Below, in pieces: positions 2,759 through 29,584 of a stretch of DNA of 31,303 nucleotides; positions within the stretch are counted from its first letter, which is position 1, and every line of letters starts with the position of its first letter. Below the pieces are notes generated by a model. The model was given only the letters and a program-made list of their open reading frames with translations. It did no database searches and was not told where the DNA came from. The stretch comes from a virus: the IMG/VR virus record IMGVR_UViG_3300025110_000073, positions 1-31,303 of that record; one strand, written 5' to 3'. The position numbers were made by a program, and so were the translations under genes.

Positions 2759-3405
2759 TATGTGTCTCCTAAACGTATAAAGTAAGCACCTGTATCAACC
2801 CTAGTTGCATCGCCTTGCCAATTTACATCTTGTCCCGCCTGTACATTAAATCTAACTTTATAATTAGTTGTATTTTGCACATCTAAAATTGCTTGAGCTA
2901 TCATTTCTGATTCCCAGTTCATTGATGGTGGGTTTTGATGACCATTAGATGTTCTAGCTAAAGCTATATTATGATAATTACTTCCATTGTCAGGAGTTGC
3001 TTCTATATATGCTCTCATATAAGCATTAGCACTATTATCCCAATAAACAGCTTTAAATTGAATTAAATAATAACCTGTACTTGGAAATGAAAACACACCT
3101 GATGATTCACTCATTCCTGTGCCTAATTGATGAGACATAGATCCACCATAAGAAGGTCTTGCCCAATTACTTGTTATTGGTTGAACATTATCATCGCTAA
3201 AATCAGTATTTACAACCCATGTATCAGCTTCAGTTATACCTGCAACTATACCTGTTAAAGATGCTCCTGATATAGCTGGTAAAGCTCCTGACAACTTAGA
3301 AGCTGCCATTCCATTTATATCTGCATCTAATATGCAGCCATCTGGTAAACCGCCATTTGCTAAACCTCCGATTGTATTGTTGCTGCCGTTAAATGTTAGA
3401 GCCAT
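2758..3405 (-). CDS. Fibre-like protein with C1q-type jelly roll, 215 aa
   Basis: The N-terminal 60 residues (MALTFNGSNNTIGGL, SKLSGALPAISGASLTGI) resemble the low-complexity shaft or attachment segment of phage fibres. Residues about 75-215 include GVFSFPSTGYYLIQFKAVYW, the strand pattern of C1q/TNF-like trimeric jelly rolls often used as fibre heads. The gene starts on the last base of the stop of the large tail fibre gene (TAATG). It probably forms or decorates the distal end of the tail fibre. Sugar or protein ligand cannot be read from the sequence. Confidence 0.72.
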   Translation of the reverse strand: MALTFNGSNNTIGGLANGGLPDGCILDADINGMAASKLSGALPAISGASLTGIVAGITEADTWVVNTDFSDDNVQPITSNWARPSYGGSMSHQLGTGMSESSGVFSFPSTGYYLIQFKAVYWDNSANAYMRAYIEATPDNGSNYHNIALARTSNGHQNPPSMNWESEMIAQAILDVQNTTNYKVRFNVQAGQDVNWQGDATRVDTGAYFIRLGDT

Positions 3406-5498
3406 TATGGAATCGTTACAACTGAAGGACTATTTATTGTTAGTGTAGCATTAATTGTTAAGGGGCCAGCAACCAAAGCGTTATGATTTGCAGTTATTGT
3501 GTAATCATTATCCATCGTATTTTCTGACTCATGAAATATAGATTCACCACCCCCACCTTGAGCACCTGCTGTTATACCAGTAAGGTTTGATCCGTCACCA
3601 TATAATGTGTCGGCATAAATATTTTGCCAACGTACAGCATTATCTCCAAGATCATGTGTGCTGTCAGCAGCAGGGATTAAAGTAGTACCTAATACTGATT
3701 GCGTTTGACCTAAAGCAAATTTTTCAGTACCAGCAATATAATGTTTTAGAGATTGTAAATTACCCCAATATTTAATACTAGCGTGTCTTGACCCATCATT
3801 TGTAGTGAAGTCTAAGTCTGAAGTACCGTTTCCGTTATAAACGTGTTTAATACTTAAAGTAGCATTATTTGCTGTATTCTCTTCAAACAACTCAAGTTTA
3901 TTTAATCCATCACTAGGTTGATACATCCTAAGTGCAGTTTTATTTGCACCAGTATATGTAAAATCCTGTAATCCAACTTTAAATTCTCCATTAGCTGTAC
4001 CACTACCAATAACTTCTGCTTTACTATTGCCTTCTTCAATTTTATCTGAATCAGGTAAAGAAACAGTATCAAAGCTTAATCCACCACTACCATCAGTCTT
4101 TAAAAACTGACCTGCATCACCATCATTATTGGGAAGAGTTAATGTATAGCTTGCACCTGCACTATGAGGTGGTGACTTGATTTTTACACCATGACTATTT
4201 TGACTACAGTTAAGTTGTACTGTTCCATCAACACTACTGCCATCACCTTTTACTTCAACAACACCTGTACCATTAGGATTTAATTTTATATTGCCATTAG
4301 TTGTACTTGTATTAATCTCACTAGCTTGAACATCTAAGTTACCACCTAATTGTGGGGTAGTATCTTCAACAAGATTACTCATACCACTACCTGCTGGAAC
4401 TGTTGCCCACTTCACACCTGTAGCTTCATTACTGTCAGCAACTAACACATAGTTATTAGTCCCAACAGGAAGTGCTGAAGGATCTCCAGAACCGTCACCA
4501 ATTAAGATTTCACCTTTAGTATCAAGATCGCTGTTCATTACTGCACCAGCAGCATTTACGTTAGTGGCATCTGTCACATCAGCACTAGCTTCTATACCTG
4601 ATAACTTAGTTTTTTCTGCATCTGTAAAAGCGTTTGTATCGCTGTTTGCTTCGTAAGCTGTTTTTATTTCTGCATTAGTCTGGTCTGCGGTAGCAGAAGC
4701 TTCTATACCATTTAATTTAGTATGATCTGCATCTGTAAATACGTTACTGTCAGAAGCCGATTCAACTAATCCTCTTATTTCACTAGCAGTCTGATCTGCG
4801 GTTGCATTAGCTTCTATAGCATTTAGTTTGCTGTGGTCAGCATCAGTAAAAACATTAGAATCTGTAGCTGCTTCTACTGCTGCTCTTATCTCAGCATTAG
4901 TTTGATCAGCAGTTGCACTAGCTTCAATATTATTTAACTTAGTATGGTCAGCATCAGTAAACACGTTGCTATCACTAGCACTTTCTACAAGTGTTCTTAT
5001 TTCACTAGCAGTCTGATCTGCTGTAGCAGAAGCTTCTATTGCATTTAATTTAGAATGATCTGCGTCTGTAAAGACATTACTATCAGTTGCAGCTTCTACT
5101 GCTGCTCTAATTTCTGCGTCTGTCTGATCTGCGGTAGCTCCTTCTTCAATTCCATTTACTTTAGTTGTAATTTCTTGTTGAGCAAATAATATCTGGTCAC
5201 TATTATTATCTAAATCTGTTTCTGTTAAAACACTACCATCAGCAAAATCTACTTTTTTTACACTTATATTTGTATCTCTAACAAATTTAATATTGCCTGT
5301 ACCAGAAGGAGGTATGTTGCCAGAAGTAAAAGTAACTGACGAACCACTAATTGTATAGTGAGTACCTAGTGTTTTAAGAACACCACCAACTGTTACATCA
5401 ACTTCAGTATTCTCTAAGAAAGAAAAAGATATAGCAAAGTTGGCTGTACTGCCATTTCCGTTATGAGTTTGTGAGGTAGCAGTTGTGTTGGTAGCCAT
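3405..5498 (-). CDS. Tail fibre protein with T7 gp17-like N-terminus, 697 aa
   Basis: The first about 110 residues (THNGNGSTANFAISFSFLEN, then IKFVRDTNIS and LTETDLDNNSDQILFAQQEI) match the conserved N-terminal domain of T7 gp17-type fibres, which docks the fibre to the tail tube. Residues 123-307 are five tandem 37-residue repeats, predicted here to form an elongated shaft. Later parts include PQLGGNLDVQASEI and TSTTNGNIKLNPNGTGVVE, typical of marine phage fibres. The C-terminal end (GGGGESIFHESENTMDNDYTI) is a common fibre terminus. No intramolecular chaperone (peptidase S74) motif is visible. It follows the gp16-like gene by 2 nt, the same position as T7 gene 17. GGAA lies 8-9 nt before the ATG. 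Confidence 0.92.
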   Translation of the reverse strand: MATNTTATSQTHNGNGSTANFAISFSFLENTEVDVTVGGVLKTLGTHYTISGSSVTFTSGNIPPSGTGNIKFVRDTNISVKKVDFADGSVLTETDLDNNSDQILFAQQEITTKVNGIEEGATADQTDAEIRAAVEAATDSNVFTDADHSKLNAIEASATADQTASEIRTLVESASDSNVFTDADHTKLNNIEASATADQTNAEIRAAVEAATDSNVFTDADHSKLNAIEANATADQTASEIRGLVESASDSNVFTDADHTKLNGIEASATADQTNAEIKTAYEANSDTNAFTDAEKTKLSGIEASADVTDATNVNAAGAVMNSDLDTKGEILIGDGSGDPSALPVGTNNYVLVADSNEATGVKWATVPAGSGMSNLVEDTTPQLGGNLDVQASEINTSTTNGNIKLNPNGTGVVEVKGDGSSVDGTVQLNCSQNSHGVKIKSPPHSAGASYTLTLPNNDGDAGQFLKTDGSGGLSFDTVSLPDSDKIEEGNSKAEVIGSGTANGEFKVGLQDFTYTGANKTALRMYQPSDGLNKLELFEENTANNATLSIKHVYNGNGTSDLDFTTNDGSRHASIKYWGNLQSLKHYIAGTEKFALGQTQSVLGTTLIPAADSTHDLGDNAVRWQNIYADTLYGDGSNLTGITAGAQGGGGESIFHESENTMDNDYTITANHNALVAGPLTINATLTINSPSVVTIP
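4578..5132 (-). repeat. Five tandem 111-bp (37-codon) repeats in the tail fibre gene
   Basis: Each unit begins ADQT, continues with an EI(R/K) helix-like segment, then D(S/T)N(V/A)FTDA and KL(N/S)xIEA, and is 37 residues long. Units cover residues 123-159, 160-196, 197-233, 234-270 and 271-307 of the fibre. Units 1 and 3 share RAAVEAATD, while units 2 and 4 share LVESASD, so the array seems built from a two-unit (222-bp) block. Unit 5 has diverged. The DNA of the units differs at many third positions, so this is an old duplication or one under selection for protein shape. Confidence 0.93.
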
Positions 5499-5500
5499 AG

Positions 5501-8500
5501 TTAGTTTCCAGAGAAGTTCTCTAATATTGGTATTATATCTTCATAAGCTCTTCTGTTCTCGTTTTCAGCCATTGATTTTATTTTTTTATCCATAATATAT
5601 TCTTTATAATACTCTACAGCAACTTTTTTGTAATCCTTCCAAAAAGTTCTTACTGGAAGTTGTAGTTCTTTTCTTATAATTTCTTTTCTTGTTAACATTC
5701 CTTGTGCGTCAATACCACCAGAACGATCAGCTTCTAATTCTTTTAAAGCTTTGATATTATTTTTATTTCTAGAAAGTTCTAAAATTATTTCTGGAAAACG
5801 TTTACCATTTTGCGGATCAAAGAAAGGTCTGCCTTTTTCGTCATAGCTTATTTTTATAAAAGGTATTAGACTTGTTAGCTTGTTATATTGTTGTGTTGTT
5901 AAATTTACTTCATTACCATATTTATTAAATCTAATAGTATCAAGCGGTGGTACAAGCTTTAGATCTAATCTTCTTATATATTCATCAACAGGATTGTCTT
6001 TTTCTTTTTTATATTTAAAAGGATTGAAATAATTACCAAAGAAAGCACCCTCTGGGTATTCTGCAATTCTGCCTGTTGTCATGCTTCTTATTGGTTCAAT
6101 ATCTGCACTAAAACCTGCTGTATAGTCTTGCAAACTTCTTGTTATCATTGTGCCAAAAATATCTAAATCTTGGAAAGGATTATTAGATAGTTTTAAACTA
6201 CCAAAATCATTACCTTCATATTCACCATAATCTTCTGTATAGTTTCCTCTGTCTTCAATTCTTTCTGTTTGAGGTTTTGTATCTCCTTTTCTAAATTTAG
6301 TTTTTCTTTTTGGAAATCTACCTTCGTATGTTTTAGTTCCTAATAATTTACCTTCATTATCACGAAGTTCGTATGTCCATTTTTCACCTCTTGCTCTTGT
6401 AATGCTTCTCCATAAAGAAGAAAAAGGTACAAGATTTGCAGCGTAATTTGCTCCTACTCTATAAAACCTTTTTAAAGCACCAACATCACTTGTTAAATCA
6501 ATAAAATCTGCAACTTGTTTAAGCATATATTTATTACCTATATTTCTTGATACCAAACCTGTGTAAGCAAAAGCAGCATTATCATAATCTTCATCACTTA
6601 CAAAATCCCTAATATATGCTAAATCACCTGAGATCATAAACATAGAACCTATTGGTTCCATTCGAGATAAGAGATCTAAATATTCATAATTTGGTAAACC
6701 ATTATCTCCTCTAATTACTTTGCCATCTTTGTCTTTCTGTAAAACTCTCCAACTATAAGGTAATTCATCAGTTCTTTTCTCTCCTTCTCTTAAATATTTA
6801 TTATGATGACCTCCACCAATAAGTGCTAATTCTGCTTCTGGGTCATCTTTGGCTGCTGCTAAAGATATGAAATAAGCCCATAAAAGACCGCCCATAGTAG
6901 CTTCTCCGTTAGCTCTATATGCAGTAGCTAAGTCATCACTTAATAAATTATCATTATGTTCTTTTAAAATTCTTCCTATAGTTGCATTATATTTTGGTGG
7001 CATACCTTTAAATAAAGTTCTAAAGTCTGGCACACCTGTTCTTCTAATTACTTGTTTACCTATATTTACAGGTGTAGTAACAAAAGGAACTATTGGCCTT
7101 AAAGGAGAAGATTTTAATATTTCTGCAAGTTTTTTTGTTTGGGCTGAACCTGCACCATTTAGACCAAATCCTTTGCCTAGTTCAGTTGTAAATGTTCTAT
7201 CTGCTGCATAATCTAAATTTCTTGTATATGCGTCTAAAATGTTTTCATTTGGTACAAAATCAGGAAAGGCAGTATCTTGTCCTCTAGTAAAACTTTTGGT
7301 ATTAACAATATCTATAATTTCATCAAAATTACTTTTTACATAAATCTGAAAAGATTTACCTGTTAATCCTCTTTCTGTTGCTTGTTGCGTAAGATCACCC
7401 ATAAGACCTGATCTAAATGCAATTTGTTTTGTAAACTCGTCACCTGCCATCATAAATCGAGAAGGTACTCTAACTCCATGACCAAATAAATTTATACTCT
7501 TTGCAAAAGCACTATCACCCATCATTCTTATTGCATATCTTTCATAAGCATCTTGTGTACCAAACATTCTTCTTTCATCAAGAATATTCTTATCAAGCCA
7601 TAACGCTTTACCTGCTGCTTTAAGACTATCTATAGAAGAAGTAAAAATAGTAGCAAGCTCTCTAGCTGCCCTTATTTTCATTTGTTTGTCCATAATTGGA
7701 CTACCTGCTGCTAGGTCTAAAGGACCAAGAGCAACATTAAATAAAGAACCAATAATATTGATAATTTGTGTTTCTGGTGCTGACAATAAATTATTTATAA
7801 ACAACTCATTACTAATTCTAAAAAGCTTACCTGCCCTATCAGTTAAAGTCATACCTTGTACAAGCTTGCTTATTTTTTTACTATCACCCTGCATAGCTAA
7901 TACTTTTCTTGTAATACCTAATAAACCTTCAATATCATTGTTTTTTATATAGGTTTGCATACCTTCATATAGCTCTTCTTTTGTTGGTATTAGTTTTTGT
8001 TCAGCTATTTGTTTTTTAGTCTTTTCAACTAAATCTCTTGTTGTTGTTTGAAATCTTTCTTTTCTTGCACGTTCAGCAGTTTTTTCTCCACCACCAATAC
8101 CTGCTGCTACTTCTTCGTCAACTGATTTACGAATAACATCTTTAGGTTCTGCATCTATAAGTTGATTTACTCTTACTGTACCTGCTGTTTCGTTACTTAT
8201 TTTTTTAGTTGGACCTGCAAGATTTATCATTCTTGATACATCTTCTGACCAATTCTGTAATAATTCATCTGGTATCTCTTCTCCAAGCATAAAAGCTTGT
8301 TCTATGTCAGTCATGTATTGGCTTACGTTTGTGGCTAATCTTTTTTGTTCTTTTATTGCACCAAGATAAATAACCCTCATGTGTTTTTCTGGGTCATTAG
8401 GACTAATTTTTTTTGCTATTTGTATTACTTTAGGCAACAATTCATCATAGCCCATAGCACTCGCAGCTTCTACTGAAAACTCATCAGGTATAACGATTCT

Positions 8501-10303
8501 ATTTAAGACTTTACCTGTAGCTTTCCATGTATCATCAGTAATACTTTCTACATCTCCCCAAATCTTAGGATTAGGTTTTGATTGCTGTAAAGGCAAGTCA
8601 GTAGCTTTAATTTTAGTTTTTACACTACCACCTATATCTACTTTATTTATATTTAAAGAGTTTGCTGGATCAAAATATATTCTTACTTGATGTAGTCTTT
8701 TACCTTTACCTGCCTTCTTTCCTCCTTGATGTGTTAAACCACCAAAACCTTCTCTTTGTAATTCTTCAGTAAAAGAAGAAAATAAGTCTGCTGTCGTATT
8801 AGCACTAAGATCATTAGCATTAGAAATTAATTTTATTTCATCATAAATTTGAGCAATACTAGCATTTGAACCAACATTATCTAAAGCTCTATCAATAATA
8901 TCAACTTCATCATAAGCATCAACATCAAAAATTTTACGCAGTTGATCTATTCGTTCTGGTGTTGCAGGTGCATCTAAATCAAAAAACTTTACAGGTTGTT
9001 TTTCAGTAACTTCATAAACAACACCACTAGGTTTTTTACCTTTTACTCTGTTTTTTTTCTGATATTTAGCAGCAGTTACTAAATCTTCTGTGACATAAAA
9101 CCCATCTCCATATAAATTTTCTACAGCTTTACCAAATTCACCACCTTCTACAAGATTAATTTCACTAGCAGCACCATGATAAAATTTTCCTTGACCTCTA
9201 GTGTCTGGTATATCTATTACTGGTTTTGTTTTAGGTGCTACTTCATCAAACTTAGGTAGGTCATCTAATACTTTTGTAAATTCATTTGAAAATTCTTCAC
9301 TACCTACAAGAGTTGCTTTATTTAACCTTTTAATTTGTTTTAGAGCATTAGCTAATCTAGTTGGGTTGTTTTTTATATCTTTCAATAGCTGAATAGTTCT
9401 ATTAGCCATCTGTTCTGGATTTAATATATTAGGACCACCTGTAATATCATCAATAAGTCTTACAGCGTATGGTTCTAATACATTTTTTAATTTAGGTAAT
9501 TTTGTTGCTGCTGTACCTGTCAGCCCAATAGTTTCTCCAAAAACTGTACCTGTTAAAAACTGCTTAAGTTTTGCTTCACCAAAATTACTTTCATCTCCTT
9601 CTTCTGGTCTTTCTGGTGCAGATAAATATTCAACAATAGGTTTTACAAATCTATTAGTAAGTACTGGATTTTCTATATCAGCTAAAAAATTAAATAAGTT
9701 TTCGTCATAAGCATCTACACCAACAAAATCCGCTGCTCCACCTGCTGTAAACCATCTAGCACCAGTAGCAATCTTGTCATAATTTTTTATACCTTGTAAT
9801 GCTTTTATACCTTTTATGCCTTTCAAAGTCTTATTAAAACCAGCATAAGGTATCAAAAACCCAGAACCAAATTTAAAAACTTGATATGCTGCATCATCTA
9901 AATCACCTTCTTTTTCAAGACCTAAAGCTTTTAAATCAATTAGTTCATTTGGATCATAAGGATTACCTTGAATCCAATCAGCTATATGTTTTATTTCGTT
10001 TGGTATGTCAACAAGACCTGCTGCGGTAGCTCTTAAAGCAGTAGCTTCTTCTTCTGATCTTGGTTTTAAAAATTCATCTTGAGTTTTAGCAGCTTTTTCT
10101 ATAACTTCTTCTGTAATTTGACTTGGTAAAACAACTGTTCCTCCTTTTCTAAGTTGTTCATATAAAGCTTTAGGTATATCTTTAATACCAAAATTTTTTA
10201 GTTTTTCATTTTCTGTGAAGTCATCAGTTTTTTTAGACCCAATACCAAAAGCTCCTTCTGGTACTGTATTTTCGTCTTGTGGAATTAAGTTTGAGTCTGT
10301 CAT
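5501..10303 (-). CDS. Giant internal virion / DNA-ejection protein, T7 gp16 position, 1600 aa
   Basis: This is the last gene before the tail fibre and follows the gp15-like gene by 3 nt, the position of T7 gene 16, whose product is ejected and helps thread DNA through the envelope. It is longer than T7 gp16 (about 1318 aa). Residues about 373-550 look like an ADP-ribosyltransferase of the polyvalent-protein type (see separate entry). Around residues 838-860, NNLLSAPETQIINIIGSLFN is a phrase typical of large polyvalent phage proteins, followed by long helical stretches. LLWAYFISLAAA (about 1140-1151) is hydrophobic and could touch membrane. I do not see the lytic transglycosylase motif found at the N-terminus of T7 gp16. 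Role is by position and size. Confidence 0.85.
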   Translation of the reverse strand: MTDSNLIPQDENTVPEGAFGIGSKKTDDFTENEKLKNFGIKDIPKALYEQLRKGGTVVLPSQITEEVIEKAAKTQDEFLKPRSEEEATALRATAAGLVDIPNEIKHIADWIQGNPYDPNELIDLKALGLEKEGDLDDAAYQVFKFGSGFLIPYAGFNKTLKGIKGIKALQGIKNYDKIATGARWFTAGGAADFVGVDAYDENLFNFLADIENPVLTNRFVKPIVEYLSAPERPEEGDESNFGEAKLKQFLTGTVFGETIGLTGTAATKLPKLKNVLEPYAVRLIDDITGGPNILNPEQMANRTIQLLKDIKNNPTRLANALKQIKRLNKATLVGSEEFSNEFTKVLDDLPKFDEVAPKTKPVIDIPDTRGQGKFYHGAASEINLVEGGEFGKAVENLYGDGFYVTEDLVTAAKYQKKNRVKGKKPSGVVYEVTEKQPVKFFDLDAPATPERIDQLRKIFDVDAYDEVDIIDRALDNVGSNASIAQIYDEIKLISNANDLSANTTADLFSSFTEELQREGFGGLTHQGGKKAGKGKRLHQVRIYFDPANSLNINKVDIGGSVKTKIKATDLPLQQSKPNPKIWGDVESITDDTWKATGKVLNRIVIPDEFSVEAASAMGYDELLPKVIQIAKKISPNDPEKHMRVIYLGAIKEQKRLATNVSQYMTDIEQAFMLGEEIPDELLQNWSEDVSRMINLAGPTKKISNETAGTVRVNQLIDAEPKDVIRKSVDEEVAAGIGGGEKTAERARKERFQTTTRDLVEKTKKQIAEQKLIPTKEELYEGMQTYIKNNDIEGLLGITRKVLAMQGDSKKISKLVQGMTLTDRAGKLFRISNELFINNLLSAPETQIINIIGSLFNVALGPLDLAAGSPIMDKQMKIRAARELATIFTSSIDSLKAAGKALWLDKNILDERRMFGTQDAYERYAIRMMGDSAFAKSINLFGHGVRVPSRFMMAGDEFTKQIAFRSGLMGDLTQQATERGLTGKSFQIYVKSNFDEIIDIVNTKSFTRGQDTAFPDFVPNENILDAYTRNLDYAADRTFTTELGKGFGLNGAGSAQTKKLAEILKSSPLRPIVPFVTTPVNIGKQVIRRTGVPDFRTLFKGMPPKYNATIGRILKEHNDNLLSDDLATAYRANGEATMGGLLWAYFISLAAAKDDPEAELALIGGGHHNKYLREGEKRTDELPYSWRVLQKDKDGKVIRGDNGLPNYEYLDLLSRMEPIGSMFMISGDLAYIRDFVSDEDYDNAAFAYTGLVSRNIGNKYMLKQVADFIDLTSDVGALKRFYRVGANYAANLVPFSSLWRSITRARGEKWTYELRDNEGKLLGTKTYEGRFPKRKTKFRKGDTKPQTERIEDRGNYTEDYGEYEGNDFGSLKLSNNPFQDLDIFGTMITRSLQDYTAGFSADIEPIRSMTTGRIAEYPEGAFFGNYFNPFKYKKEKDNPVDEYIRRLDLKLVPPLDTIRFNKYGNEVNLTTQQYNKLTSLIPFIKISYDEKGRPFFDPQNGKRFPEIILELSRNKNNIKALKELEADRSGGIDAQGMLTRKEIIRKELQLPVRTFWKDYKKVAVEYYKEYIMDKKIKSMAENENRRAYEDIIPILENFSGN
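8654..9187 (-). other. ADP-ribosyltransferase-like domain inside the ejection protein
   Basis: Covers about residues 373-550 of the 1600-aa protein. Order of motifs: KFYHGA (His376), then a Gly-rich GDGFYVTEDLVTAAKYQ (Tyr403), then a strand GVVYEVTE, and a closing EGFGGLTHQGG...HQVRIYFDP. This His ... GxGFYxT..xxAxxY ... G(F/Y)xGL ... V.FDP layout is the pattern recalled for ADP-ribosyltransferases in phage polyvalent proteins (ART-PolyVal). The third catalytic residue is uncertain; Glu518 is a candidate. If active it would enter the cell with the ejected proteins and could modify a host target using NAD+. Activity is inference. Confidence 0.62.
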
Positions 10304-10306
10304 TTT

Positions 10307-12829
10307 TTAAAATAATGCTGGATTTCTACGAGCATCATTAAGAACATCTGTTACTAATTTAACGTAGTCTGAATCTGTTGCATAACCATTTTCTTTTAAT
10401 CTTATTATTGCTTCTTCAGCAGTATCTACATTAATAGTACCTTTTCTAGTAGTAAAACCATTAAACCAATCATCATTATGATGTGTCTTGTAATCTAATA
10501 AACTCTCTTTTACAGATTTAAAGTTTTTAAACTTAGCTTTAACTTTAACCATTTTGCCATCTATTTCTTCATAAGTATCAACTTCAGTAAAGTTACCTGA
10601 TTTTATGTCTTCTGGTCTTGCTTTTATCCCTAAGTAGTTATTTGTACCAGTAATTTTTAATCCATGATCTGACTCAACACCAAATTGTGCTGCAACTACT
10701 TCTGGAAATTTAATACCAACTTCTTTAGCTAAATTGTAAATTGTTTTAAAATTAGTTTCCATACGTTGTATTGCATTTGTGTTTTTGCTAATTATTTCTT
10801 TAGTGCTTTTTTGAGTTGTAGGAGCCATAGCAAGTAAACTGCCATCTACACCACCTAATGAAGTAATAATATCACTAAAAATTTTCTGATTTTGTGGTGT
10901 ATTTAAAGAACTTAAATCTAATTCTGATTCGTAAAAATTATTATTTGTCTTTGTGGTGTTTGTGTTATTTGTGGGGTCTTCTTTATTTTCTTCTGAAAAT
11001 CTACCAGTAAATTCTGATCCTCTATTCAAAATTCTATTAGGATCATCAGAATCTAAATCCGTTTGTTTAAATACTGCTTTTTTAAAAGGATTTTCTGCGT
11101 TTGGATATAATTGATTTCTTAACTTTACAAATTCTGGTCTTCCATCAGCAGCTAAAGCTTGTACAGCATATTGTTGTTCTATTGCTTGTACTTCTAAACT
11201 TGTAGGTCGTTTGCCATTTGTTTCTATATAATCTATGTAATATTTTTTTATCTTATCTCGAACATCAAAACTAATCTTAGTTGCTTTTACCATATTGCTT
11301 CTAGTTTGATCGTTAAAAGGACCAAGTATTTGAAACTTATTTCCTACACCTAAGTTATCGTTAACTATATTCATTATGTTAGTTGTAGAAGTTTGTATAT
11401 CTTCTCCTAAACCATCACTTTCTGCTGCAAAGATTTTAAGTTTACCTATTAAGTCGATTGCTTCATTGTCCATTGTTGCATGATTATTTTCTATATCTGA
11501 AATAGCTTTTTCTAAATCAGTATCTAAACCATCAAATACACCTAATGTAATTTTCTTTTTTAAATCTGGAATAATTTTACTTTTAAGATCAAAGTTATCT
11601 GATTTACCTAATTGATCTATATAATCTTGTTCTTCTTTTGTTGTAAATCTAGTATCATTTTTTAACGCTTCATACGCATTTCGTTTAGTTTTTATTGCTG
11701 TAGTTTTTTCTGCATCTGTCATATCTACAGTAAGAGGTATTTTATTAATATTTTGAAACTTATTTTTAATTTCTAATTTGTTAAGTAAAGGTTGTACTTG
11801 ATTTTTGTATTTAATTTTTTGCAATACTAATCTTTCAAACTTTTCATCAAAAGCTGCTGATTTTGTTAGATAGTCTTTATGACTTCTAAGATCTTTTTCT
11901 CCATATTTAACTAAACTTAAAAGCCTATCTGGGAAACTTTCAGCTAAAGCTAATTTTTGTGCAGCATCAGGTTTGCTTACATCTATATCTAATAGTTTTT
12001 CACCTTGAGCATAAATATTTTCTATAAGAGTTGTATATGTTTTAGTAGCATCTGTACCAGTAATACCACCTTTATACATATTTTCTAGGTAGTTATTTAA
12101 AATTTCACCAGCTTGATCTTCTTTTCCTTTGCTTAGATGTAAAGATGCTTCTGTTAAAATCTCAGGCATCAATCCTAGAAATTTATTATATTCAAAAGCT
12201 TGATTTTGTTTAGTTCCATAATTAGCATTCTTAAACATCTCCTTACTCATTTCGGGAATATAAAAATCATCTACTACAGTTGAATCAATATTTAATTTTT
12301 TAAAATTATCTAAATCTTCATCAAGATAACTTTTTCTCCAAGTTTTATATTCATTGCTATCAGTTTTAAATTCTTTTAAAAACTTTAATATAGGTTTTCC
12401 GTCCTCATCTTTTTGACCTGTATCAATTCTAGTGACATCATAATCACTCTCCATTCTGTTACTTCTTTTTAAAGCTTGTAATGTTACTAAAGATTTTTCA
12501 TATTGTCTTCTATAAGCTCTTGTACCACCTATTATTTCTCTAGCTGTTTGTCTGCCTTCGGCTTTTTCAAGTTTGTTTGACAAATCAGCAATAGCACCAT
12601 TATTTATTTCAGCATCTAAAACATCAGCAACAGCACGTTTTCTATCTTTTTTTGCTTTCGTATCGCTTTTACTTACAAGAAATTTTGTTATTGCTGGATT
12701 AACTGTTTGTAAGATTTCAGCTACATCCATAATGCTAGTTTTTCGTATAGCAGTAACAGGCTGTACAAAAGTATTTACAGGACTATCGTAAATCCTTGTA
12801 GCTGCTGTACTTTGAAAACTTGATGACAT
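10307..12829 (-). CDS. Internal virion protein, gp15-like, with C-terminal GH73 muramidase domain, 840 aa
   Basis: The start is taken at the ATG at 12829 (MSSSFQSTAATRIY), which has GGAGT 9 nt upstream; a TTG 15 nt earlier would also be open but overlaps the gp14-like gene. Residues about 30-690 are long, charged and helical without a clear family. Residues about 695-835 form a glucosaminidase-like domain: VVAAQFGVESDHG with Glu719 as the probable catalytic acid, NNYLGIKA at 730-737, then FKNFKSVKESLLDY. GH73 enzymes cut the glycan chain of peptidoglycan. Position between gp14-like and gp16-like genes makes it a member of the ejected core that opens the cell wall for DNA entry. T7 gp15 itself (about 747 aa) has no such domain. 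Confidence 0.85.
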   Translation of the reverse strand: MSSSFQSTAATRIYDSPVNTFVQPVTAIRKTSIMDVAEILQTVNPAITKFLVSKSDTKAKKDRKRAVADVLDAEINNGAIADLSNKLEKAEGRQTAREIIGGTRAYRRQYEKSLVTLQALKRSNRMESDYDVTRIDTGQKDEDGKPILKFLKEFKTDSNEYKTWRKSYLDEDLDNFKKLNIDSTVVDDFYIPEMSKEMFKNANYGTKQNQAFEYNKFLGLMPEILTEASLHLSKGKEDQAGEILNNYLENMYKGGITGTDATKTYTTLIENIYAQGEKLLDIDVSKPDAAQKLALAESFPDRLLSLVKYGEKDLRSHKDYLTKSAAFDEKFERLVLQKIKYKNQVQPLLNKLEIKNKFQNINKIPLTVDMTDAEKTTAIKTKRNAYEALKNDTRFTTKEEQDYIDQLGKSDNFDLKSKIIPDLKKKITLGVFDGLDTDLEKAISDIENNHATMDNEAIDLIGKLKIFAAESDGLGEDIQTSTTNIMNIVNDNLGVGNKFQILGPFNDQTRSNMVKATKISFDVRDKIKKYYIDYIETNGKRPTSLEVQAIEQQYAVQALAADGRPEFVKLRNQLYPNAENPFKKAVFKQTDLDSDDPNRILNRGSEFTGRFSEENKEDPTNNTNTTKTNNNFYESELDLSSLNTPQNQKIFSDIITSLGGVDGSLLAMAPTTQKSTKEIISKNTNAIQRMETNFKTIYNLAKEVGIKFPEVVAAQFGVESDHGLKITGTNNYLGIKARPEDIKSGNFTEVDTYEEIDGKMVKVKAKFKNFKSVKESLLDYKTHHNDDWFNGFTTRKGTINVDTAEEAIIRLKENGYATDSDYVKLVTDVLNDARRNPALF

Positions 12830-12833
12830 AATT

Positions 12834-13370
12834 TTAGACTCCAAAGATGTTGTCTTCTAGAGAAAGTTCAGTTGTCAAGGCACTTGTGGCAGCACCTAAA
12901 ATAATTGATCCTGTTGAAGGTATTTGATTATAAGCAGTTATAGTATTACTTCTCAATCTGTTTCTTATGTTTTGATATTCTGATTCTGTACCTTGTATAT
13001 TTCTATCATACTGCCTACTAAATGATTTTAAGTCTTGTCGTATAGATTCTGTAAAATTACCTCCTTGTCTTCCTAAATCTGCAAACAATAAATTTATATT
13101 GTTACCTGCTTGACCTGATGCTAACAAAGCACTTTGAGCTTTTAATATGTCTATATTTTTAGCAAATATATTTTGTGCTTCTTGATTTTCTTTTGAAGCT
13201 TTTTGTTCTGATAAAGCTAATTGTTGATTTCTTTTACTGTCTTCAGCAGATTTGACACCTGTTCTTTCTTGTTCAGCAGTTTGCTCCGCAGCGTCAGTTG
13301 CAGCACCTTTCATAGCAAGCCCTTCAAAAAGCTTTAGACCTCCACTAATAGCTGTTGGAATTGAACACAT
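12834..13370 (-). CDS. Internal virion protein, T7 gp14-like, 178 aa
   Basis: The N-terminus MCSIPTAISGG strongly resembles T7 gp14 (MC..IPIAISG), the ejected protein that forms a pore in the outer membrane. Residues about 25-80 are rich in Ala, Gln, Glu and Lys and probably helical; residues 80-130 include ASGQAGNNINLLFADLGRQGG and FSRQYDRNIQ. T7 gp14 is 196 aa. The ATG follows directly after the TAA of the gp13-like gene, with GAGG 9 nt upstream. Its neighbours on both sides are the gp13 and gp15 counterparts, which supports the call. Cys2 is shared with two other small virion-type proteins in this window. Confidence 0.86.
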   Translation of the reverse strand: MCSIPTAISGGLKLFEGLAMKGAATDAAEQTAEQERTGVKSAEDSKRNQQLALSEQKASKENQEAQNIFAKNIDILKAQSALLASGQAGNNINLLFADLGRQGGNFTESIRQDLKSFSRQYDRNIQGTESEYQNIRNRLRSNTITAYNQIPSTGSIILGAATSALTTELSLEDNIFGV

Positions 13371-13823
13371 TTAGGCAATCCTCAGAAATTCATAGAATGG
13401 TTTTTCATGTTGTCCATACTTTTCGTGATAATTTATAAAAACAAAACCGAGAGCTTCTAACCACTTTATAGCAGTATGATTCTCTGCATATACAAAATTA
13501 TATAGGAGTTTATAAGATTTCAACAAACTATCTACCCATTCTCGACCTTTTCTTATTAGTTGTATTTTGTATTTTTTATTAGAAAACAATTCATCAGTAC
13601 AAATCATCCATATACAACCATCTTTTATTACTCCGCATAACCCCATAGGTTGATCTTTGTCACCAGCTATTGTAAGTACTCTTTGACCAAACAAATAACA
13701 TAAACGTAAAGCATCTTCGGCATTTTTTCCTGTTTGGTATAAACCTTCTAACCTATCCATTTCTCTCATGTTTTGGCATACATAATTAAGATCTGATAAT
13801 TTTGATTTTCTCAAATATCCCAT
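13371..13823 (-). CDS. T7 gp13-like protein with GNAT-type fold, 150 aa
   Basis: The C-terminal half (YKLLYNFVYAENHTAIKWLEALGFVF, residues about 103-128, then a Tyr/Phe-rich ending) parallels T7 gp13 (LWNYVWVGNTSHIRFLKTIGAVF) and looks like the end of an N-acetyltransferase (GNAT) fold. In T7 gp13 is needed for assembly of the internal core but is not retained in mature particles. The N-terminal part MGYLRKSKLSDLNYVCQNMRE is also GNAT-like. The classic acetyl-CoA loop (Q/RxxGxG/A) is not clear, so enzymatic activity is doubtful. Its start overlaps the end of the tubular B gene by 1 nt. Confidence 0.85.
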   Translation of the reverse strand: MGYLRKSKLSDLNYVCQNMREMDRLEGLYQTGKNAEDALRLCYLFGQRVLTIAGDKDQPMGLCGVIKDGCIWMICTDELFSNKKYKIQLIRKGREWVDSLLKSYKLLYNFVYAENHTAIKWLEALGFVFINYHEKYGQHEKPFYEFLRIA

Positions 13824-16279
13824 TAAGCTCTTCTACTCCTCATGTGAAATACTCCTTCATATTCTGCACTAGCTAACAAGGTAGGCAAGAAGGTATTGTT
13901 CTTGACATCTATATCTACTCTATCTGATTTACTCATAATAGGTACTTTAAATGTTCCTGTATCTAAATTAATCTCACCAATAGCAGCAGAAGCAGCACCA
14001 AGCAAACGACCAGTAAATTTATGTAGAGATGTGTCTCTATTCTCAGGTGTTACTTCTACTTGGAAGAAACCAGAATCTTCATACTTAATATAAAAATGAT
14101 GTATTTGTAATCGACCACTTATAAGTTCAGTAGCACCTCCTCCCCCTTGAGTTAGTCTTTGTTGACTAAACCTATAGTGCATTTCATAAGGTTCGCCAAT
14201 AATAAATTTACTATTTCTAAAATCACCTGTTGCTGTAATGGTAGAAGTAGAACCATTAGTAGTATTAGTAGTCGTAAGTGCTTGCCCTGATGTAAGAGTT
14301 TTTGTATTGCCTTGAGCATCTACAAATGTACTTGTTTCTCCATTTGCCAGATACCTACCAACAATATTCATATTAGCTCTTAGTCTATAAGGAACTGTAA
14401 AAGTAGATAGACCAGTACCAGAGCTATAAGATACTGATACACCAGTAGTTGCTTCAGTTACTTTATGGTCTAGATGATATTCAAAGTCTGCATTAGGTTC
14501 TCTAAAGTTTGTTTCAAATGGTATCTTTTCTAAGGTCACACCATTAGCTTCTTCTACAACCATTATCAAATCAGTACCAATAAAATCAATATTTAAAATA
14601 GACCTATTGCTGTTTAATGTATAAGTAAACCAAGCATTAAGAGCTTTACTAAAGCCCTCTCCATATAACCATCTGTTTACATATAGCTTGTTTGGATTTT
14701 CTGTACCAAGCAAAACAAGAATGTCTTGGTTGTTTGATACTGCCATTTTAAAAATACCACTTGGTATCAGTCTTGGTACATGAATAGTTGTGTTTGCTGC
14801 ATCTTGAATCTGTTGATTACCTGCAATAATATATTCTCTTATACCAGCAAAAGAACCTTTCTTGGTTAAGAAATAAATAGAAGAACCAGAACCTACAGGT
14901 TGTGCTGCTGCATTACTTTCAAATTCAGTCTGTACCAGTACGTTAGCTGTTGAAGGTGTAAGGTTATCTGCTGAACTTGATAATACAAATTGCGTTTGTT
15001 CAGAAAATAATATAAGTTTTTCTCCCATAGTTACTGCGTGTTTTAAGATCGCAACTTTGGTATGAGAAGCAGCTACATCTATGGGTTCAGTATCTAAAAC
15101 TGATATGACTGTTTCAGAAAAGAAGTTAAAAAACTCTGAGACTGTCGAAAGTATTACATTATCTGCTGCTAAAAAACCAAGTCTATTTCTAAAAAAGAAT
15201 ACGTTATTAATTTTATTACCAATAAAAGAAGGGTTAGGTGAAGAAACTAAATCACCAACAACACGTTCACCCCATTTAGGTAATGTAAAAGTAGTACCAG
15301 ATAATGTATAAGTATCACCATCTACTCTTGCAAATCTAAAATTACCATCTGCCTGACGTATTAAAACATGGGGCATGGTTGCATAATCAAATTTAAAAGG
15401 TATGCCAGCTTCTACTGTTTCTTGCCATTGTCCTTCTTCTAAAGCATTACCATTATTAGTTGTAAATTTAACGTAGTAGTTATCAAAGTTTGTACCTTCA
15501 TCACCTGTAATTTCTACTACATATCCATTAGGTGACACATTTGGTAGATCAGTAAATTGCTGTACTGAATTTTTTATTACTGTCATCTTGGTATTACCTT
15601 GAGTATCAGTACCATCTATAGAAAAATCACTACCATCATTTTTCTTTATATGAATTACAGGACCATTTCTAGCAATCGTAAAACCTGTAAGACCAGAGTT
15701 TAAACCACTAGCAAGATCAGAAGCTACAGTATCAGTTGAAAGAGGATCATTACCATCTGTATTATCGGTAACTGTTACCCCATCTACAGTCACAGAGTAA
15801 GTTGTTTTAGCTGTTGCCTGAGTTATAAATACTACTGCTTGAGTTATATTACTAGCACTATTTGACAAAGCAGAATCCATTGCTGTTGTGATACTTGTAT
15901 TAACAACAAAAGTAAAGTCAGCAATAGTTACTGTCTTCATTACACTTCTAGGATTTGATGTGTTTAAGTAAGCAGTTCCATCAGGTTTTGTTACTGTCTT
16001 TTCTGTACCATCTAACTCATAGACTTTGACATTACCATTACTAAATATTGCTACATACTGTTCACTAGCATCTCTATTTATAGTTTGTATATGAACATTA
16101 CCAAGAGTAGAACTACCAACTGAAGCTAAGAACTGAGATCCCGACCTTTTTGTAAGACCAAGAACAGGGTTGCTATCAGCATTATCTTGTATATCAGCGT
16201 GGTCTGCTTGCTTCAAAGCATCAGAAGACTGCGATATACCTCTTAGTAATGTAGGTATAGATCTTGAAATAACACTCAT
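13823..16279 (-). CDS. Tail tubular protein B (T7 gp12-like nozzle), 818 aa
   Basis: Length is close to T7 gp12 (794 aa), and the gene lies between the gp11-like and gp13-like genes. The N-terminus (SRSIPTLLRGISQSSDALKQ) is the usual start of this family, and the stretch INNVFFFRNRLGFLAADNVI at about residues 355-375 is its most conserved signature. The protein forms the tail nozzle below the gp11 adaptor and carries the fibre attachment region. Beta-rich composition fits the propeller-like fold. Two-nt gap to the upstream gp11-like gene suggests one transcript and linked expression. Confidence 0.93.
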   Translation of the reverse strand: MSVISRSIPTLLRGISQSSDALKQADHADIQDNADSNPVLGLTKRSGSQFLASVGSSTLGNVHIQTINRDASEQYVAIFSNGNVKVYELDGTEKTVTKPDGTAYLNTSNPRSVMKTVTIADFTFVVNTSITTAMDSALSNSASNITQAVVFITQATAKTTYSVTVDGVTVTDNTDGNDPLSTDTVASDLASGLNSGLTGFTIARNGPVIHIKKNDGSDFSIDGTDTQGNTKMTVIKNSVQQFTDLPNVSPNGYVVEITGDEGTNFDNYYVKFTTNNGNALEEGQWQETVEAGIPFKFDYATMPHVLIRQADGNFRFARVDGDTYTLSGTTFTLPKWGERVVGDLVSSPNPSFIGNKINNVFFFRNRLGFLAADNVILSTVSEFFNFFSETVISVLDTEPIDVAASHTKVAILKHAVTMGEKLILFSEQTQFVLSSSADNLTPSTANVLVQTEFESNAAAQPVGSGSSIYFLTKKGSFAGIREYIIAGNQQIQDAANTTIHVPRLIPSGIFKMAVSNNQDILVLLGTENPNKLYVNRWLYGEGFSKALNAWFTYTLNSNRSILNIDFIGTDLIMVVEEANGVTLEKIPFETNFREPNADFEYHLDHKVTEATTGVSVSYSSGTGLSTFTVPYRLRANMNIVGRYLANGETSTFVDAQGNTKTLTSGQALTTTNTTNGSTSTITATGDFRNSKFIIGEPYEMHYRFSQQRLTQGGGGATELISGRLQIHHFYIKYEDSGFFQVEVTPENRDTSLHKFTGRLLGAASAAIGEINLDTGTFKVPIMSKSDRVDIDVKNNTFLPTLLASAEYEGVFHMRSRRA

Positions 16280-16281
16280 AG

Positions 16282-16890
16282 TTATCTAATTAAAGCACTA
16301 GAAGGATTGTAGGTGTCAAAGACATTTGTAAGAGAAGGATCTCCTCGTAGCATATTGTGATCTCCATTTGCTAAATCTGTTTCCATTAATATAGCTCTAG
16401 CTCTTACCTCATCTTGCTGTGTATAAGTTCTTAATCCTTGGTCACTTACAAGTCTATCAACAAATATCCTTGCAGCTTTGATATTCATATAGTATCTAGC
16501 TGGTTCTGGTATCTCACTAAAATCTCTAAAATAAACAACAGTACAAATCAAGTCTTCTTCAAATTCAAACTTATTATTTTGTCTGTCATATAATTTTAAA
16601 CCACGTTGTATAGGATCTATGGTCGGGTGTTGATGAATATTAGCATCTACTCTTAATACATCAGCAGGTAAGTTTACATGATTAGATCCATCTCTAGTAA
16701 GAGTTACATCTGTTTCAGTATTAAAAGACCAACCTTCTGACTGTACACTTTTGTTTACTTCAGTAAGAGTTGATTGAGCAATACGAGCATCAACAGGAAG
16801 AGTACCGACAAGACTGTTTATAGGTGCTTCTCCTATAGCAGCCAACATAATGTTGATACATTCAAGTTCTGTGGTTTCAGCTACAGCCAT
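16282..16890 (-). CDS. Tail tubular protein A (T7 gp11-like adaptor), 202 aa
   Basis: Begins MAVAETTELECINIMLAAIG followed by EAPINSL, the hallmark start of T7 gp11-type gatekeeper proteins. Later it has VNLPADVLRVDA and a conserved LICTVVYFRDFSEIPEPARYY, also family features. Length (202 aa) matches T7 gp11 (196 aa). It connects the portal to the nozzle. The ATG overlaps the stop of the 56-aa gene upstream (TAATG), so it is probably translationally coupled to that gene. Confidence 0.93.
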   Translation of the reverse strand: MAVAETTELECINIMLAAIGEAPINSLVGTLPVDARIAQSTLTEVNKSVQSEGWSFNTETDVTLTRDGSNHVNLPADVLRVDANIHQHPTIDPIQRGLKLYDRQNNKFEFEEDLICTVVYFRDFSEIPEPARYYMNIKAARIFVDRLVSDQGLRTYTQQDEVRARAILMETDLANGDHNMLRGDPSLTNVFDTYNPSSALIR

Positions 16891-17182: not shown

Positions 17183-18169
17183 TTAAGAAGCAGATAACTT
17201 AATAGTAGCTGCACATTCTGGTCTTAGGATTCCATGACCAAGAGCATACTTAGCAACCATTAATGTACCTTGATACATAATTCCGTAGTCAGAACCAGAG
17301 ATCTCAGTTGTCATGTCCATAAGTTTTACTGTACCAACAGCAGACTTGTGGAAGACAAGACCAATAGTTTTACTATCGTCACCTGAGTAAGTGTTATTAG
17401 CACCACTTGGGTTAGATCCTACGTTTGACTGAGGTACGTTATTAGACATCATTACAGGGATGCCAGCTACTTGTTGTACCTTACCAGAAGCAAATGAACC
17501 ATTACCTTGTGGGTTGAAGTCAACATCTACAGTTCTAGTAGCAGATTCAGCAAGTTTGTAGTACTCAGCAGGTGGTAGTACACAGAAACGATCTGTTGGA
17601 GGAATGTCTCTTTCGTCAAATGTCTGTGCAATATCATAGATAGCTGCTGCTATCTCATCACCAGTTACATCAGAAGATGCTGTATTACCATTAGCAAGTG
17701 TTAATACAAGACCACCATTACCACCTGTAAGAGTAGTAGATGCTCTTGAAGCATTTGCTATTTGCTTGGCTACGTTTTGATCGTAAGTACGAGCAAGTGC
17801 TTTACCAAGTTCATCAGCGTAAGTTGCTCTTACGTCATAATGATTTTTGAGTTCATCTATTGAAGCAATGAAACTCTGTGCAATTAGAAGATCATCTATG
17901 TTGATAATCTTTTCATTCGCTAAGATCTGGTTTGCTCCTACAAGTGGGTTGCCTACTGTATGGTACGCAGCAGTCGCAGTTCCTAGAACAGGAAACTGTG
18001 CTGATTTTCCACTTGTAATAGTACGAACTGAATGAAGCTGTTCATTAAAAATGTTATTTCTGGTGAACGCAGTTAGCACTTCCCCCGAAAAGATTTTTAA
18101 AAACAGGGCATCAAAGCCTGTTCCACTATTGTTAACCAGACCAAGGCGAGAGGTAGTGGCGTTAGCCAT
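17183..18169 (-). CDS. Major capsid protein (T7 gp10-like, HK97 fold), 328 aa
   Basis: Length is close to T7 gp10A (345 aa). N-terminal TSRLGLVNNSGTGFDALFLK, then FSGEVLTAFTRNNIF and GKSAQFPVLGTATAAYHT (residues about 26-75) are the typical start of T7-like capsid proteins, containing the N-arm and E-loop region. The middle has IDDLLIAQSFIASIDELKNH and ARTYDQNVAKQIANASR. A strong AAGGAG lies 7 nt before the ATG at 18169, fitting high expression, and a perfect terminator follows. No frameshift product such as T7 gp10B is evident after the stop. Confidence 0.96.
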   Translation of the reverse strand: MANATTSRLGLVNNSGTGFDALFLKIFSGEVLTAFTRNNIFNEQLHSVRTITSGKSAQFPVLGTATAAYHTVGNPLVGANQILANEKIINIDDLLIAQSFIASIDELKNHYDVRATYADELGKALARTYDQNVAKQIANASRASTTLTGGNGGLVLTLANGNTASSDVTGDEIAAAIYDIAQTFDERDIPPTDRFCVLPPAEYYKLAESATRTVDVDFNPQGNGSFASGKVQQVAGIPVMMSNNVPQSNVGSNPSGANNTYSGDDSKTIGLVFHKSAVGTVKLMDMTTEISGSDYGIMYQGTLMVAKYALGHGILRPECAATIKLSAS

Positions 18170-28522: not shown

Positions 28523-28721
28523 TGATCTTATCCCTTAATGCTTCAAGCTCTTCTGTCCTCCTAATACAATATTCTATTGACCTATTGTAATTTCTTTTCT
28601 TACCTATATCATTTTCTTTTTGTGCTAAATCAGTCCAGTATTTTATAAACTTCTCTTCTTCCCTTAATGCTTTTTTAATAGATTGATTAATAAAATAAAT
28701 TTGACTGTCAGTAAATTCCAT
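28515..28721 (-). CDS. Small coiled-coil protein, 68 aa
   Basis: Charged helical protein (SQIYFINQSIKKALREEEKF, then YNRSIEYCIRRTEELEALRD) placed between integrase and RNA polymerase. Its ATG shares one base with the integrase stop (TGATG), so it is probably translated by coupling. The frequent Glu/Lys and evenly spaced Ile/Leu suggest a helical hairpin. It could be an accessory factor of either neighbour. No family recognised. Confidence 0.68.
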   Translation of the reverse strand: MEFTDSQIYFINQSIKKALREEEKFIKYWTDLAQKENDIGKKRNYNRSIEYCIRRTEELEALRDKINV

Positions 28722-29584
28722 CAGTTCAACACCTCCACTACAGAGTGCAAAGCCTTTGGTGCTAGGTGTGCATAGATCATGGTTGTCTGTATGTCCTCAT
28801 GCCCTAGCCAATCCTTTACCAGTAGTAAGGGAACACCACGTTGTACTAATCTTGAGGCACAAGTATGTCGGCATAGGTGCAAGGTATAAAACTTCTTATC
28901 GGCATAGCCTAAGTCCTTCCTAGCTCTTTGCCATATAGTATTTAGTTCTGTATAGTCCAAGCTAAATACCTTATCAAAATCTTTTAGATCATAGGAATGA
29001 TAAGTTAATATATCTTTTACTCTGTAAGTCATAGGTACAGCTACAGCTTTATCATTCTTTCTCTCATTAAAATTTATTTGATTATTTTCAAAATCAATAA
29101 ATCTTTTTTCTAAGTTTAGTAGCTCGTTAACCCTACACCCTAAGTCTATTAGACACTCAATAATATTTTTAGCTTCGTTATACAATGAACTTGCTCTGTA
29201 TCTATGTTCATTGGTAAGTATATAATCAAGTAACTCTGTCTCCATATCCTTAGTTAAATATTCTACCTTTTGTTTCTTTACCCTATGTCTTTTAGGTAGT
29301 CGGATTTCTTTGATATGTCCATCATCAATCATGCTATCAAGTACCACTTTAAGATACCCTCGTTTAGTATTGATGACCGCTTTACTATTCTTCAGTTCGT
29401 CCCTTAAATAATCCATCATCTTATTTACTACTGGTGTAGTTATTTTATTTACAGGCAAGTCTCCAATAGCTTTGATGTTATGTTTCATAGCTATTAAAAA
29501 ATTCTGTGCTGAGTCTGTGCCATTGTAAGTTCTCTTATACACAAGCCTTGCAGCTTCCGATAAGGTTGGTACTTTAGTTTTCAT
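28721..29584 (-). CDS. int: Tyrosine recombinase / integrase, 287 aa
   Basis: N-terminal SAM-like DNA-binding part at about residues 20-95 (NFLIAMKHNIKAIGDLPVNK, then INTKRGYLKVVLDSMI). Catalytic domain: LGCRVNELLNL (Arg151), KNDKAVAVPM (Lys179 probable), LHLCRHTCASRL (His236, Arg239), WLGHEDIQTTMIYAHL (His262, nucleophile Tyr271). So the full R-K-H-R-H-Y set is present and the enzyme is probably active in phage integration. Location right before RNA polymerase matches integrase-bearing T7-like marine phages. No matching attachment site or tRNA fragment was recognised. Its ATG is preceded by the AGAACCACTA motif. Confidence 0.94.
   Translation of the reverse strand: MKTKVPTLSEAARLVYKRTYNGTDSAQNFLIAMKHNIKAIGDLPVNKITTPVVNKMMDYLRDELKNSKAVINTKRGYLKVVLDSMIDDGHIKEIRLPKRHRVKKQKVEYLTKDMETELLDYILTNEHRYRASSLYNEAKNIIECLIDLGCRVNELLNLEKRFIDFENNQINFNERKNDKAVAVPMTYRVKDILTYHSYDLKDFDKVFSLDYTELNTIWQRARKDLGYADKKFYTLHLCRHTCASRLVQRGVPLLLVKDWLGHEDIQTTMIYAHLAPKALHSVVEVLN

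What the first reader, a model, noticed from the sequence alone, without database searches (positions are those of the whole stretch)
8654..9187. ADP-ribosyltransferase-like domain inside an ejected core protein
Residues about 373-550 of the gp16-like protein hold KFYHGA, GDGFYVTED..TAAKY, and a closing GFGGL...VRIYFDP, the layout of polyvalent-protein ART domains. Since gp16-type proteins enter the cell before or with the DNA, this would deliver an NAD-dependent modifying enzyme at the first moment of infection, comparable in logic to the T4 Alt protein. T7 gp16 has nothing similar.
Basis: partly seen in the sequence, partly recalled or inferred. Interest (0 to 1): 0.62.

Follow-up and report, generated by a model that had tools for sequence, protein, structure and literature searches.

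The report
Swappable ADP-ribosyltransferase in cyanophage ejection protein
A T7-like marine phage related to Prochlorococcus phages carries, inside the large protein it is predicted to push into the cell with its DNA, an ADP-ribosyltransferase-fold domain that related phages gain, lose or replace as a cassette, which points to a delivered enzyme aimed at the host or its defences.

Summary
Residues 373-550 of the 1600-aa minus-strand ORF 5501-10303 contain the motifs as stated; the module is residues 369-556 (window 8636-9199, minus). An AlphaFold2 model from 37 diverse homologues (pLDDT 82, pTM 0.80) matches ADP-ribosyltransferases (ARTs); its best PDB match is a protein of the cyanophage A4 pre-ejectosome (VIA Z 13.8). 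H376 and Y403 are invariant in 37/37 non-redundant homologues. The usual third acid is missing: the GYDG Asp is Gly (35/37) and the PARP-Glu position is variable; H538 (37/37) and D545 (36/37) are conserved instead. The carrier is a gp16-type internal virion protein by gene order and homology; the nearest isolate is Prochlorococcus phage P-SCSP2. New here: the domain is a recombining cassette. Close relatives lack exactly this segment, two carry an HExxH segment there, P-SCSP2 carries another, and ART DNA diverges by 1-9% where flanks diverge by 9-55%. Most likely it is an ejected NAD-dependent effector, probably against host defence or control. Activity, target and delivery are not shown. ARTs in injected phage proteins are a known concept; this family, slot and swapping are a new variant.

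The parts
5501..10303 (-). gp16-type internal virion (ejection) protein, 1600 aa, carrier of the ART cassette
   Evidence: phrog_6651 internal virion protein over residues 946-1304, E 1.8e-16; tblastn to 'internal virion protein D' of marine phages over residues ~700-1333; T7 gene order
8636..9199 (-). ADP-ribosyltransferase-fold module, residues 369-556
   Evidence: AF2 model pLDDT 82.3, pTM 0.80; fold matches are ARTs; Pfam DUF3990 / ART-PolyVal
8621..9223 (-). cassette: residues 361-561, replaced by only VTK in 'empty' relatives such as L006
   Evidence: DNA identity block with sharp edges near residues 361-371 and 550
9176..9178 (-). codon of H376, strand-1 His of H-Y ARTs
   Evidence: invariant 37/37
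9095..9097 (-). codon of Y403, strand-2 Tyr of H-Y ARTs
   Evidence: invariant 37/37
8741..8743 (-). codon of G521, where polyvalent ARTs have the Asp of GYDG
   Evidence: Gly in 35/37, Asp in L130, Asn in L098; comparison with RPP1, R7L, DS06 and F116 ARTs
8687..8692 (-). codons of H538 (invariant) and Q539 (by-eye equivalent of PARP Glu988, variable)
   Evidence: H538 37/37, Q539 27/37
8669..8671 (-). codon of D545 in YFDP
   Evidence: 36/37 Asp, one Glu
6392..7468 (-). conserved gp16-like core, residues 946-1304
   Evidence: phrog_6651
10307..12844 (-). gp15-position internal protein with C-terminal glucosaminidase domain
   Evidence: PF01832 E 7.4e-14 at residues 701-837
12834..13370 (-). 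gp14-like internal virion protein
   Evidence: phrog_15746 E 3.2e-7, phrog_805
13371..13823 (-). T7 gp13-like protein
   Evidence: PF11090 E 3.8e-10
13823..16279 (-). nozzle protein (gp12)
   Evidence: PF25675 E 3e-250
16282..16890 (-). tail tubular protein (gp11)
   Evidence: PF17212 E 8.5e-45
17183..18169 (-). major capsid protein (gp10-like)
   Evidence: PF21703 E 1.9e-68

Best explanation
Residues 369-556 are an H-Y-type ADP-ribosyltransferase domain plugged into a variable slot of a gp16-like ejection protein of a T7-like marine phage related to Prochlorococcus phage P-SCSP2. SHOWN by computation: ART fold (predicted), invariant His and Tyr, purifying selection, placement in an internal virion protein, and exchange of the domain as a discrete cassette between phages. 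INFERRED: like T7 gp16 the protein sits in the capsid core and is ejected into the cell with or ahead of the genome; the ART domain then uses host NAD+ to attach ADP-ribose to a host macromolecule (or otherwise consumes NAD+) before any phage gene is expressed. Presence, absence and replacement of the slot content among close relatives suggests a target that varies between hosts, most likely a defence or host-control protein, and not an indispensable step. Catalysis would use H376 and Y403 with a non-canonical third position, as in mono-ADP-ribosylating H-Y-x enzymes (PARP16 type; general knowledge).
For: Fold. Family profiles. His/Tyr 37/37 and in all 64 contexts. Purifying selection. Virion setting and T7 gene order. 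Best fold match is a protein of a solved cyanophage pre-ejectosome. Same ART family in other gp16 lineages and in portal-containing and other virion proteins. Cassette exchange. Packaged ARTs are an established theme: PMC5512222, PMC9503650.
Against: No activity, substrate or delivery was tested. The third catalytic acid is missing. The ART lies at residues 369-556; in T7 gp16 that numbering is near a membrane segment, so the periplasmic or cytoplasmic side is unresolved. Pfam matches of the window domain are below curated cut-offs. No match of the ART in any isolated relative examined, so no phenotype is known.
Confidence: 0.62

Rival explanations
1. T4 Alt-like takeover: the ejected ART modifies host RNA polymerase or another central enzyme to favour early phage transcription.
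For: Delivery logic; ARTs fused to N4-like virion RNA polymerases were proposed to act so (PMC5512222); the phage has a T7-type RNA polymerase and needs host RNA polymerase first (general knowledge of T7).
Against: Relatives up to 96% identical outside the cassette do without it, so it is not an essential early step; Alt is of the R-S-E clade, this is H-Y.
Confidence: 0.15
2. Catalytically dead ART fold, kept as a binding or spacer module (for NAD+, ADP-ribose or a protein) in the ejection complex.
For: Third-position acid lost (GYDG Asp to Gly; PARP Glu position variable).
Against: H376 and Y403 are invariant over 37 diverse homologues, as are H538 and Y430, which a spacer would not need; H-Y-x ARTs without the Glu are active in the PARP family (general knowledge); the protein works without the module in close relatives.
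Confidence: 0.15
3. The domain acts inside the producing cell or the virion (on capsid, core or packaging proteins, or against superinfecting phages), and not on the next host.
For: The gene lies among late structural genes; packaging-centred roles have been suggested for some packaged ARTs (PMC9503650).
Against: The family recurs in ejection and portal-containing virion proteins, the class expected to be delivered; nothing seen points to a virion substrate.
Confidence: 0.07

Closest known systems
Cyanophage A4 (Anabaena phage A-4L) gp27, PDB 9k3a chain B, pre-ejectosome protein; Phormidium phage Pf-WMP3 gp26 likewise
   Same: ART-like domain within a gp16-position ejection-complex protein of a T7-like cyanophage; closest solved fold (Foldseek E 1.7e-5, VIA Z 13.8); YHG or FHG His motif present and GTYFS / AIYLT at the Tyr strand
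   Different: The motifs lie near the C terminus (about residue 1425 of 1717 in A-4L, 1200 of 1495 in Pf-WMP3), sequence only about 20% alike, annotated merely as tail protein / unnamed; no sign in the data here of a cassette
Polyvalent-protein ARTs (ART-PolyVal PF18760, Tox-ART-HYD2 clade; prototype Roseovarius Plymouth podovirus 1 vRNAP) and DUF3990 (PF13151)
   Same: His in strand 1, Tyr in strand 2, virion-associated carrier; weak but consistent profile matches; viral fold matches named ART-PolyVal
   Different: Third-motif Asp (GYDG) is Gly; extra helical insert of about 70 residues before it; carrier is a T7 gp16-type protein and not an N4 RNA polymerase or MuF protein
Phage T4 Alt
   Same: Delivery logic: ART packaged in the head and injected with DNA (PMC5512222)
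   Different: Alt is R-S-E clade, a stand-alone head protein; this is an H-Y domain inserted in an ejection-channel protein, and is dispensable in relatives
Prochlorococcus phages P-SCSP2 gene 30 and P-SSP10 internal virion protein
   Same: Homologous carrier proteins that align on both sides of the slot with ART-bearing relatives L089 and L115
   Different: Neither has the ART: P-SSP10 has nothing at the site, P-SCSP2 another segment of about 190 aa

Membership tests
ADP-ribosyltransferase superfamily | ART fold | tested here: met
   AF2 pLDDT 82.3, pTM 0.80; leading matches are ARTs. A predicted fold.
ADP-ribosyltransferase superfamily | Strand-1 His and strand-2 Tyr of the H-Y group | tested here: met
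   H376 and Y403 37/37, located in strands 1 and 2 of the model
ADP-ribosyltransferase superfamily | NAD+-dependent transferase activity | not testable with these tools
   Needs protein and NAD+
ART-PolyVal / Tox-ART-HYD2 clade | Profile match | tested here: inconclusive
   19/37 members match PF18760 (best 1.4e-4), the window domain only at E 0.087, all judged without reaching the curated cut-off for the window
ART-PolyVal / Tox-ART-HYD2 clade | Active site H-Y-D, with Asp in strand 5 (PMC5512222) | tested here: not met
   If the Asp is that of GYDG, it is Gly in 35/37 including the window. D545 (36/37) in the last strand is a possible substitute, not mapped on coordinates. So it is ART-PolyVal-like, not filed as a member.
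DUF3990 (PF13151) | Score above Pfam gathering threshold | tested here: not met
   Window domain 23.3 bits against a cut-off of 32.2, N-terminal half only
T4 Alt/VIP2 clade | R-S-E active site | tested here: not met
   His and Tyr at the first two positions
T7 gp16-type ejection protein | Gene order between gp15-like and tail fibre in a T7-like late cluster | tested here: met
T7 gp16-type ejection protein | Homology of the C-terminal core to internal virion proteins | tested here: met
   phrog_6651 E 1.8e-16; 33 phage records
T7 gp16-type ejection protein | Presence in virions, ejection, cytoplasmic C-terminal part | not testable with these tools
   Known for T7 (PMC8954989); inferred here
Polyvalent proteins (Iyer et al. 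2017) | Several disparate enzymatic or effector domains in one injected protein | tested here: inconclusive
   Only one enzymatic-type domain recognised plus the gp16 core; the peptidoglycan hydrolase is on the separate gp15-position protein

The most novel reading that the evidence does not exclude
The gp16-like ejection proteins of abundant marine T7-like phages have an effector slot in which ARTs, HExxH (putative metallopeptidase) segments and other modules are exchanged by recombination, so that the ejection-channel protein doubles as a delivery vehicle for interchangeable first-strike effectors; this ART family works with a non-canonical third active-site position on an unknown host or defence target.
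Probability: 0.4. Interest if true: 0.8.

Novelty: new variant of a known kind. Interest (0 to 1): 0.6.

Why it matters
MPP-C phages, the clade of the nearest isolate, are very abundant in surface oceans, and their internal virion proteins could not be annotated by those who isolated them (PMC9860041). An ART cassette in the ejection protein gives one a testable activity at the first moment of infection. The natural pairs of near-identical proteins with and without the cassette allow a clean experiment on what a delivered effector is for. It also extends packaged ARTs to T7-like marine phages; a 2022 survey found ARTs in only about 3% of podoviruses (PMC9503650).

Tried and rejected
Plus-strand reading of 8654-9187: stops throughout. 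First AF2 run on 11 near-identical sequences: pLDDT 56, discarded. PDB sequence search with the single domain: only chance hits; with the A4 profile PARP16's H-Y stretch appears at E 0.22, suggestive only. NCBIfam: weak SseL and PIMT matches judged chance. tblastn of the window ART and of the L092, L117 and L132 domains against 50,697 phage records: no match; L130 gave a weak 52-aa match in phage F116. Bacterial genome contigs: none, so no reservoir found at that sensitivity. First impression of a pelagiphage rejected: the nearest isolate is P-SCSP2 on Prochlorococcus. HExxH segment: no Pfam or PHROG family, so 'metallopeptidase' rests on the motif alone. P-SCSP1a's large protein: no ART found. 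Hydropathy for membrane topology: inconclusive. Papers on ARTs in T7-like ejection proteins or on the cyanophage A4 ejectosome: none found in the open library, so whether the A4 structure paper names its domain an ART is unknown to me.

Full report
WHAT WAS CHECKED. The plus strand is not coding there.

WHAT THE DOMAIN IS. Scanning the whole protein against Pfam gives DUF3990 at E 8.7e-4 over residues 374-436; the isolated domain gives 5.7e-5, both below Pfam's cut-off. Iterative searches of viral contigs yielded 61 distinct full-length domain sequences in 64 distinct protein contexts, all with the His and Tyr motifs. A non-redundant alignment of 37 (25-89% identity to the window, A4) has H376, G377, G399, Y403, Y430, G519, H538, V540, I542 and Y543 invariant. 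Of the 37 members 34 match DUF3990, 19 ART-PolyVal and 2 PARP at E 0.1 or better. AlphaFold2 on this alignment gave pLDDT 82.3 and pTM 0.80, after a shallow first run had failed. Foldseek's best PDB match is 9k3a_B (E 1.7e-5), followed by RES toxins and the diphtheria catalytic domain. VIA-align gives 9k3a_B Z 13.8 over 175 residues, then diphtheria toxin, tankyrase, RES, cholix, ParT, MbcT, Arr, Tpt1 and PARP1. Individual Z values of 6-8 are middling, but nearly every listed entry is an ART. Viral model matches include many named ART-PolyVal. I take the ART fold as established at the level of prediction.

ACTIVE SITE. H376 lies in strand 1 and Y403 in strand 2 of the model, the NAD-holding pair of H-Y ARTs. 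The third residue is not canonical. Comparison with the prototype polyvalent ART (Roseovarius Plymouth podovirus 1 vRNAP), its Dinoroseobacter relatives and phage F116 puts the window's GFGG where those have GYDG, RYDG or DYDG; the Asp is Gly in 35/37, with Asp in L130 and Asn in L098. By eye, the position of PARP1 Glu988 falls near Q539 (27/37 Gln, otherwise Lys, Thr, Asn or Ser). Conserved instead are H538 (37/37), H525 and D545 (36/37 each). Which of these, if any, completes the site cannot be decided without coordinates or mutagenesis. Purifying selection (dN/dS 0.08-0.53) argues that the domain is in use.

WHERE IT SITS. The C-terminal part matches PHROG 6651 'internal virion protein' and 33 phage records, mostly Pelagibacter and Roseobacter phages, over residues of about 700-1333. 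The gene order is T7's: capsid, tube, nozzle, gp13, gp14-like, gp15-like (with a C-terminal glucosaminidase), gp16-like, fibre. T7 gp16 is ejected and its C-terminal part is thought to reach the cytoplasm (PMC8954989); for this protein that is inference, and the side of the membrane on which the ART ends up is unresolved. Support comes from cyanophage A4: the best fold match, 9k3a_B, is the 1717-residue gp27 of Anabaena phage A-4L, part of a solved pre-ejectosome. So an ART-like domain in a T7-like ejection-complex protein already exists in the PDB, though nearer the C terminus (YHG at about 1425) and annotated only as 'tail protein'.

WHICH PHAGE. The window is a 31,303-base linear virus record. 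The nearest isolate is Prochlorococcus phage P-SCSP2, with 80% identity in the nozzle protein and 77.6% DNA identity over 69% of 11000-31303. This is the MPP-C clade, whose internal virion proteins its discoverers could not annotate (PMC9860041).

THE CASSETTE. Among the close-family sequences fetched, the slot between residues 350 and 571 is empty in 24, holds the ART in 10 and an HExxH-containing segment in 2 (a few are the same contig fetched twice, and the search was not an unbiased census, since one search word lay in the ART). Empty relatives up to 96% identical outside have VTK in place of residues 361-561. Between the window and L001-L005 the ART DNA differs by 0.7-2% while the flanks differ by 9-21%; against L036, L038 and L040 it is 5.7-9.2% versus 45-55%. 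The low-divergence block has sharp edges at about residues 361-371 and 550. Synonymous sites are affected too, so this is exchange of DNA and not selection on the protein alone. In a second gp16 lineage L115 aligns to cultured P-SSP10 on both sides of a clean ~215-aa ART insertion. In a third, P-SCSP2 gene 30 aligns to ART-bearing L089 on both sides of the slot but holds a different ~190-aa segment there. The same ART family also occurs in portal-containing and other virion proteins.

HOW IT MOST LIKELY WORKS. The protein is packaged in the core and ejected with the genome, and the ART acts on host material using host NAD+ before phage transcription. Because close relatives do without it or carry another segment, the target is more likely a host-specific defence or control factor than a universal step; the T4 Alt comparison holds for delivery logic only. 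Activity, substrate, compartment and ejection remain unshown.

NOVELTY. ARTs in injected phage proteins are a published theme (PMC5512222, PMC9503650). This family, its altered third motif, its setting in T7-like marine phage ejection proteins and its exchange at a fixed slot are, as far as the open literature searched shows, not described. I file it as a new variant of a known kind.

Noticed in passing
L029:2493-3434 and the same slot of L032: At the same slot two relatives carry a ~310-aa segment with the zinc-peptidase-like motif HELWH in place of the ART; no Pfam or PHROG family matches it.
   Followed up: partly
L142:21746-22306 (P-SCSP2 gene 30, residues ~385-571): The cultured Prochlorococcus phage P-SCSP2 has a different, unnamed segment at the slot; part of it is also found in L097 and L105, downstream of their ART domains.
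   Followed up: partly
window 10307-12844: The gp15-position protein ends in a glucosaminidase domain, so the peptidoglycan hydrolase that T7 carries on gp16 seems to be on its neighbour here.
   Followed up: no
window 28721-29584: A tyrosine integrase next to the T7-type RNA polymerase gene (26126-28522), as in P-SCSP2; no tRNA gene in the window that could mark an attachment site.
   Followed up: no
L071-L080, L095: A sub-family of the ART has an extra ~90-aa insert after the KY helix, with the core otherwise kept.
   Followed up: no
L108, L109: About 3030-aa proteins that carry the ART and match phrog_9880 of unknown function; phrog_4700, a family also weakly matched by the window ART, matches a second stretch near residue 703-824, so two ART-like domains are possible.
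   Followed up: no
window 3405-5498: The fibre-position protein holds several near-identical tandem repeats of ~46 residues (ADQTxAEIRxxVExAxDSNVFTDADHxKLNxIEAxAT), seen in the translation.
   Followed up: no
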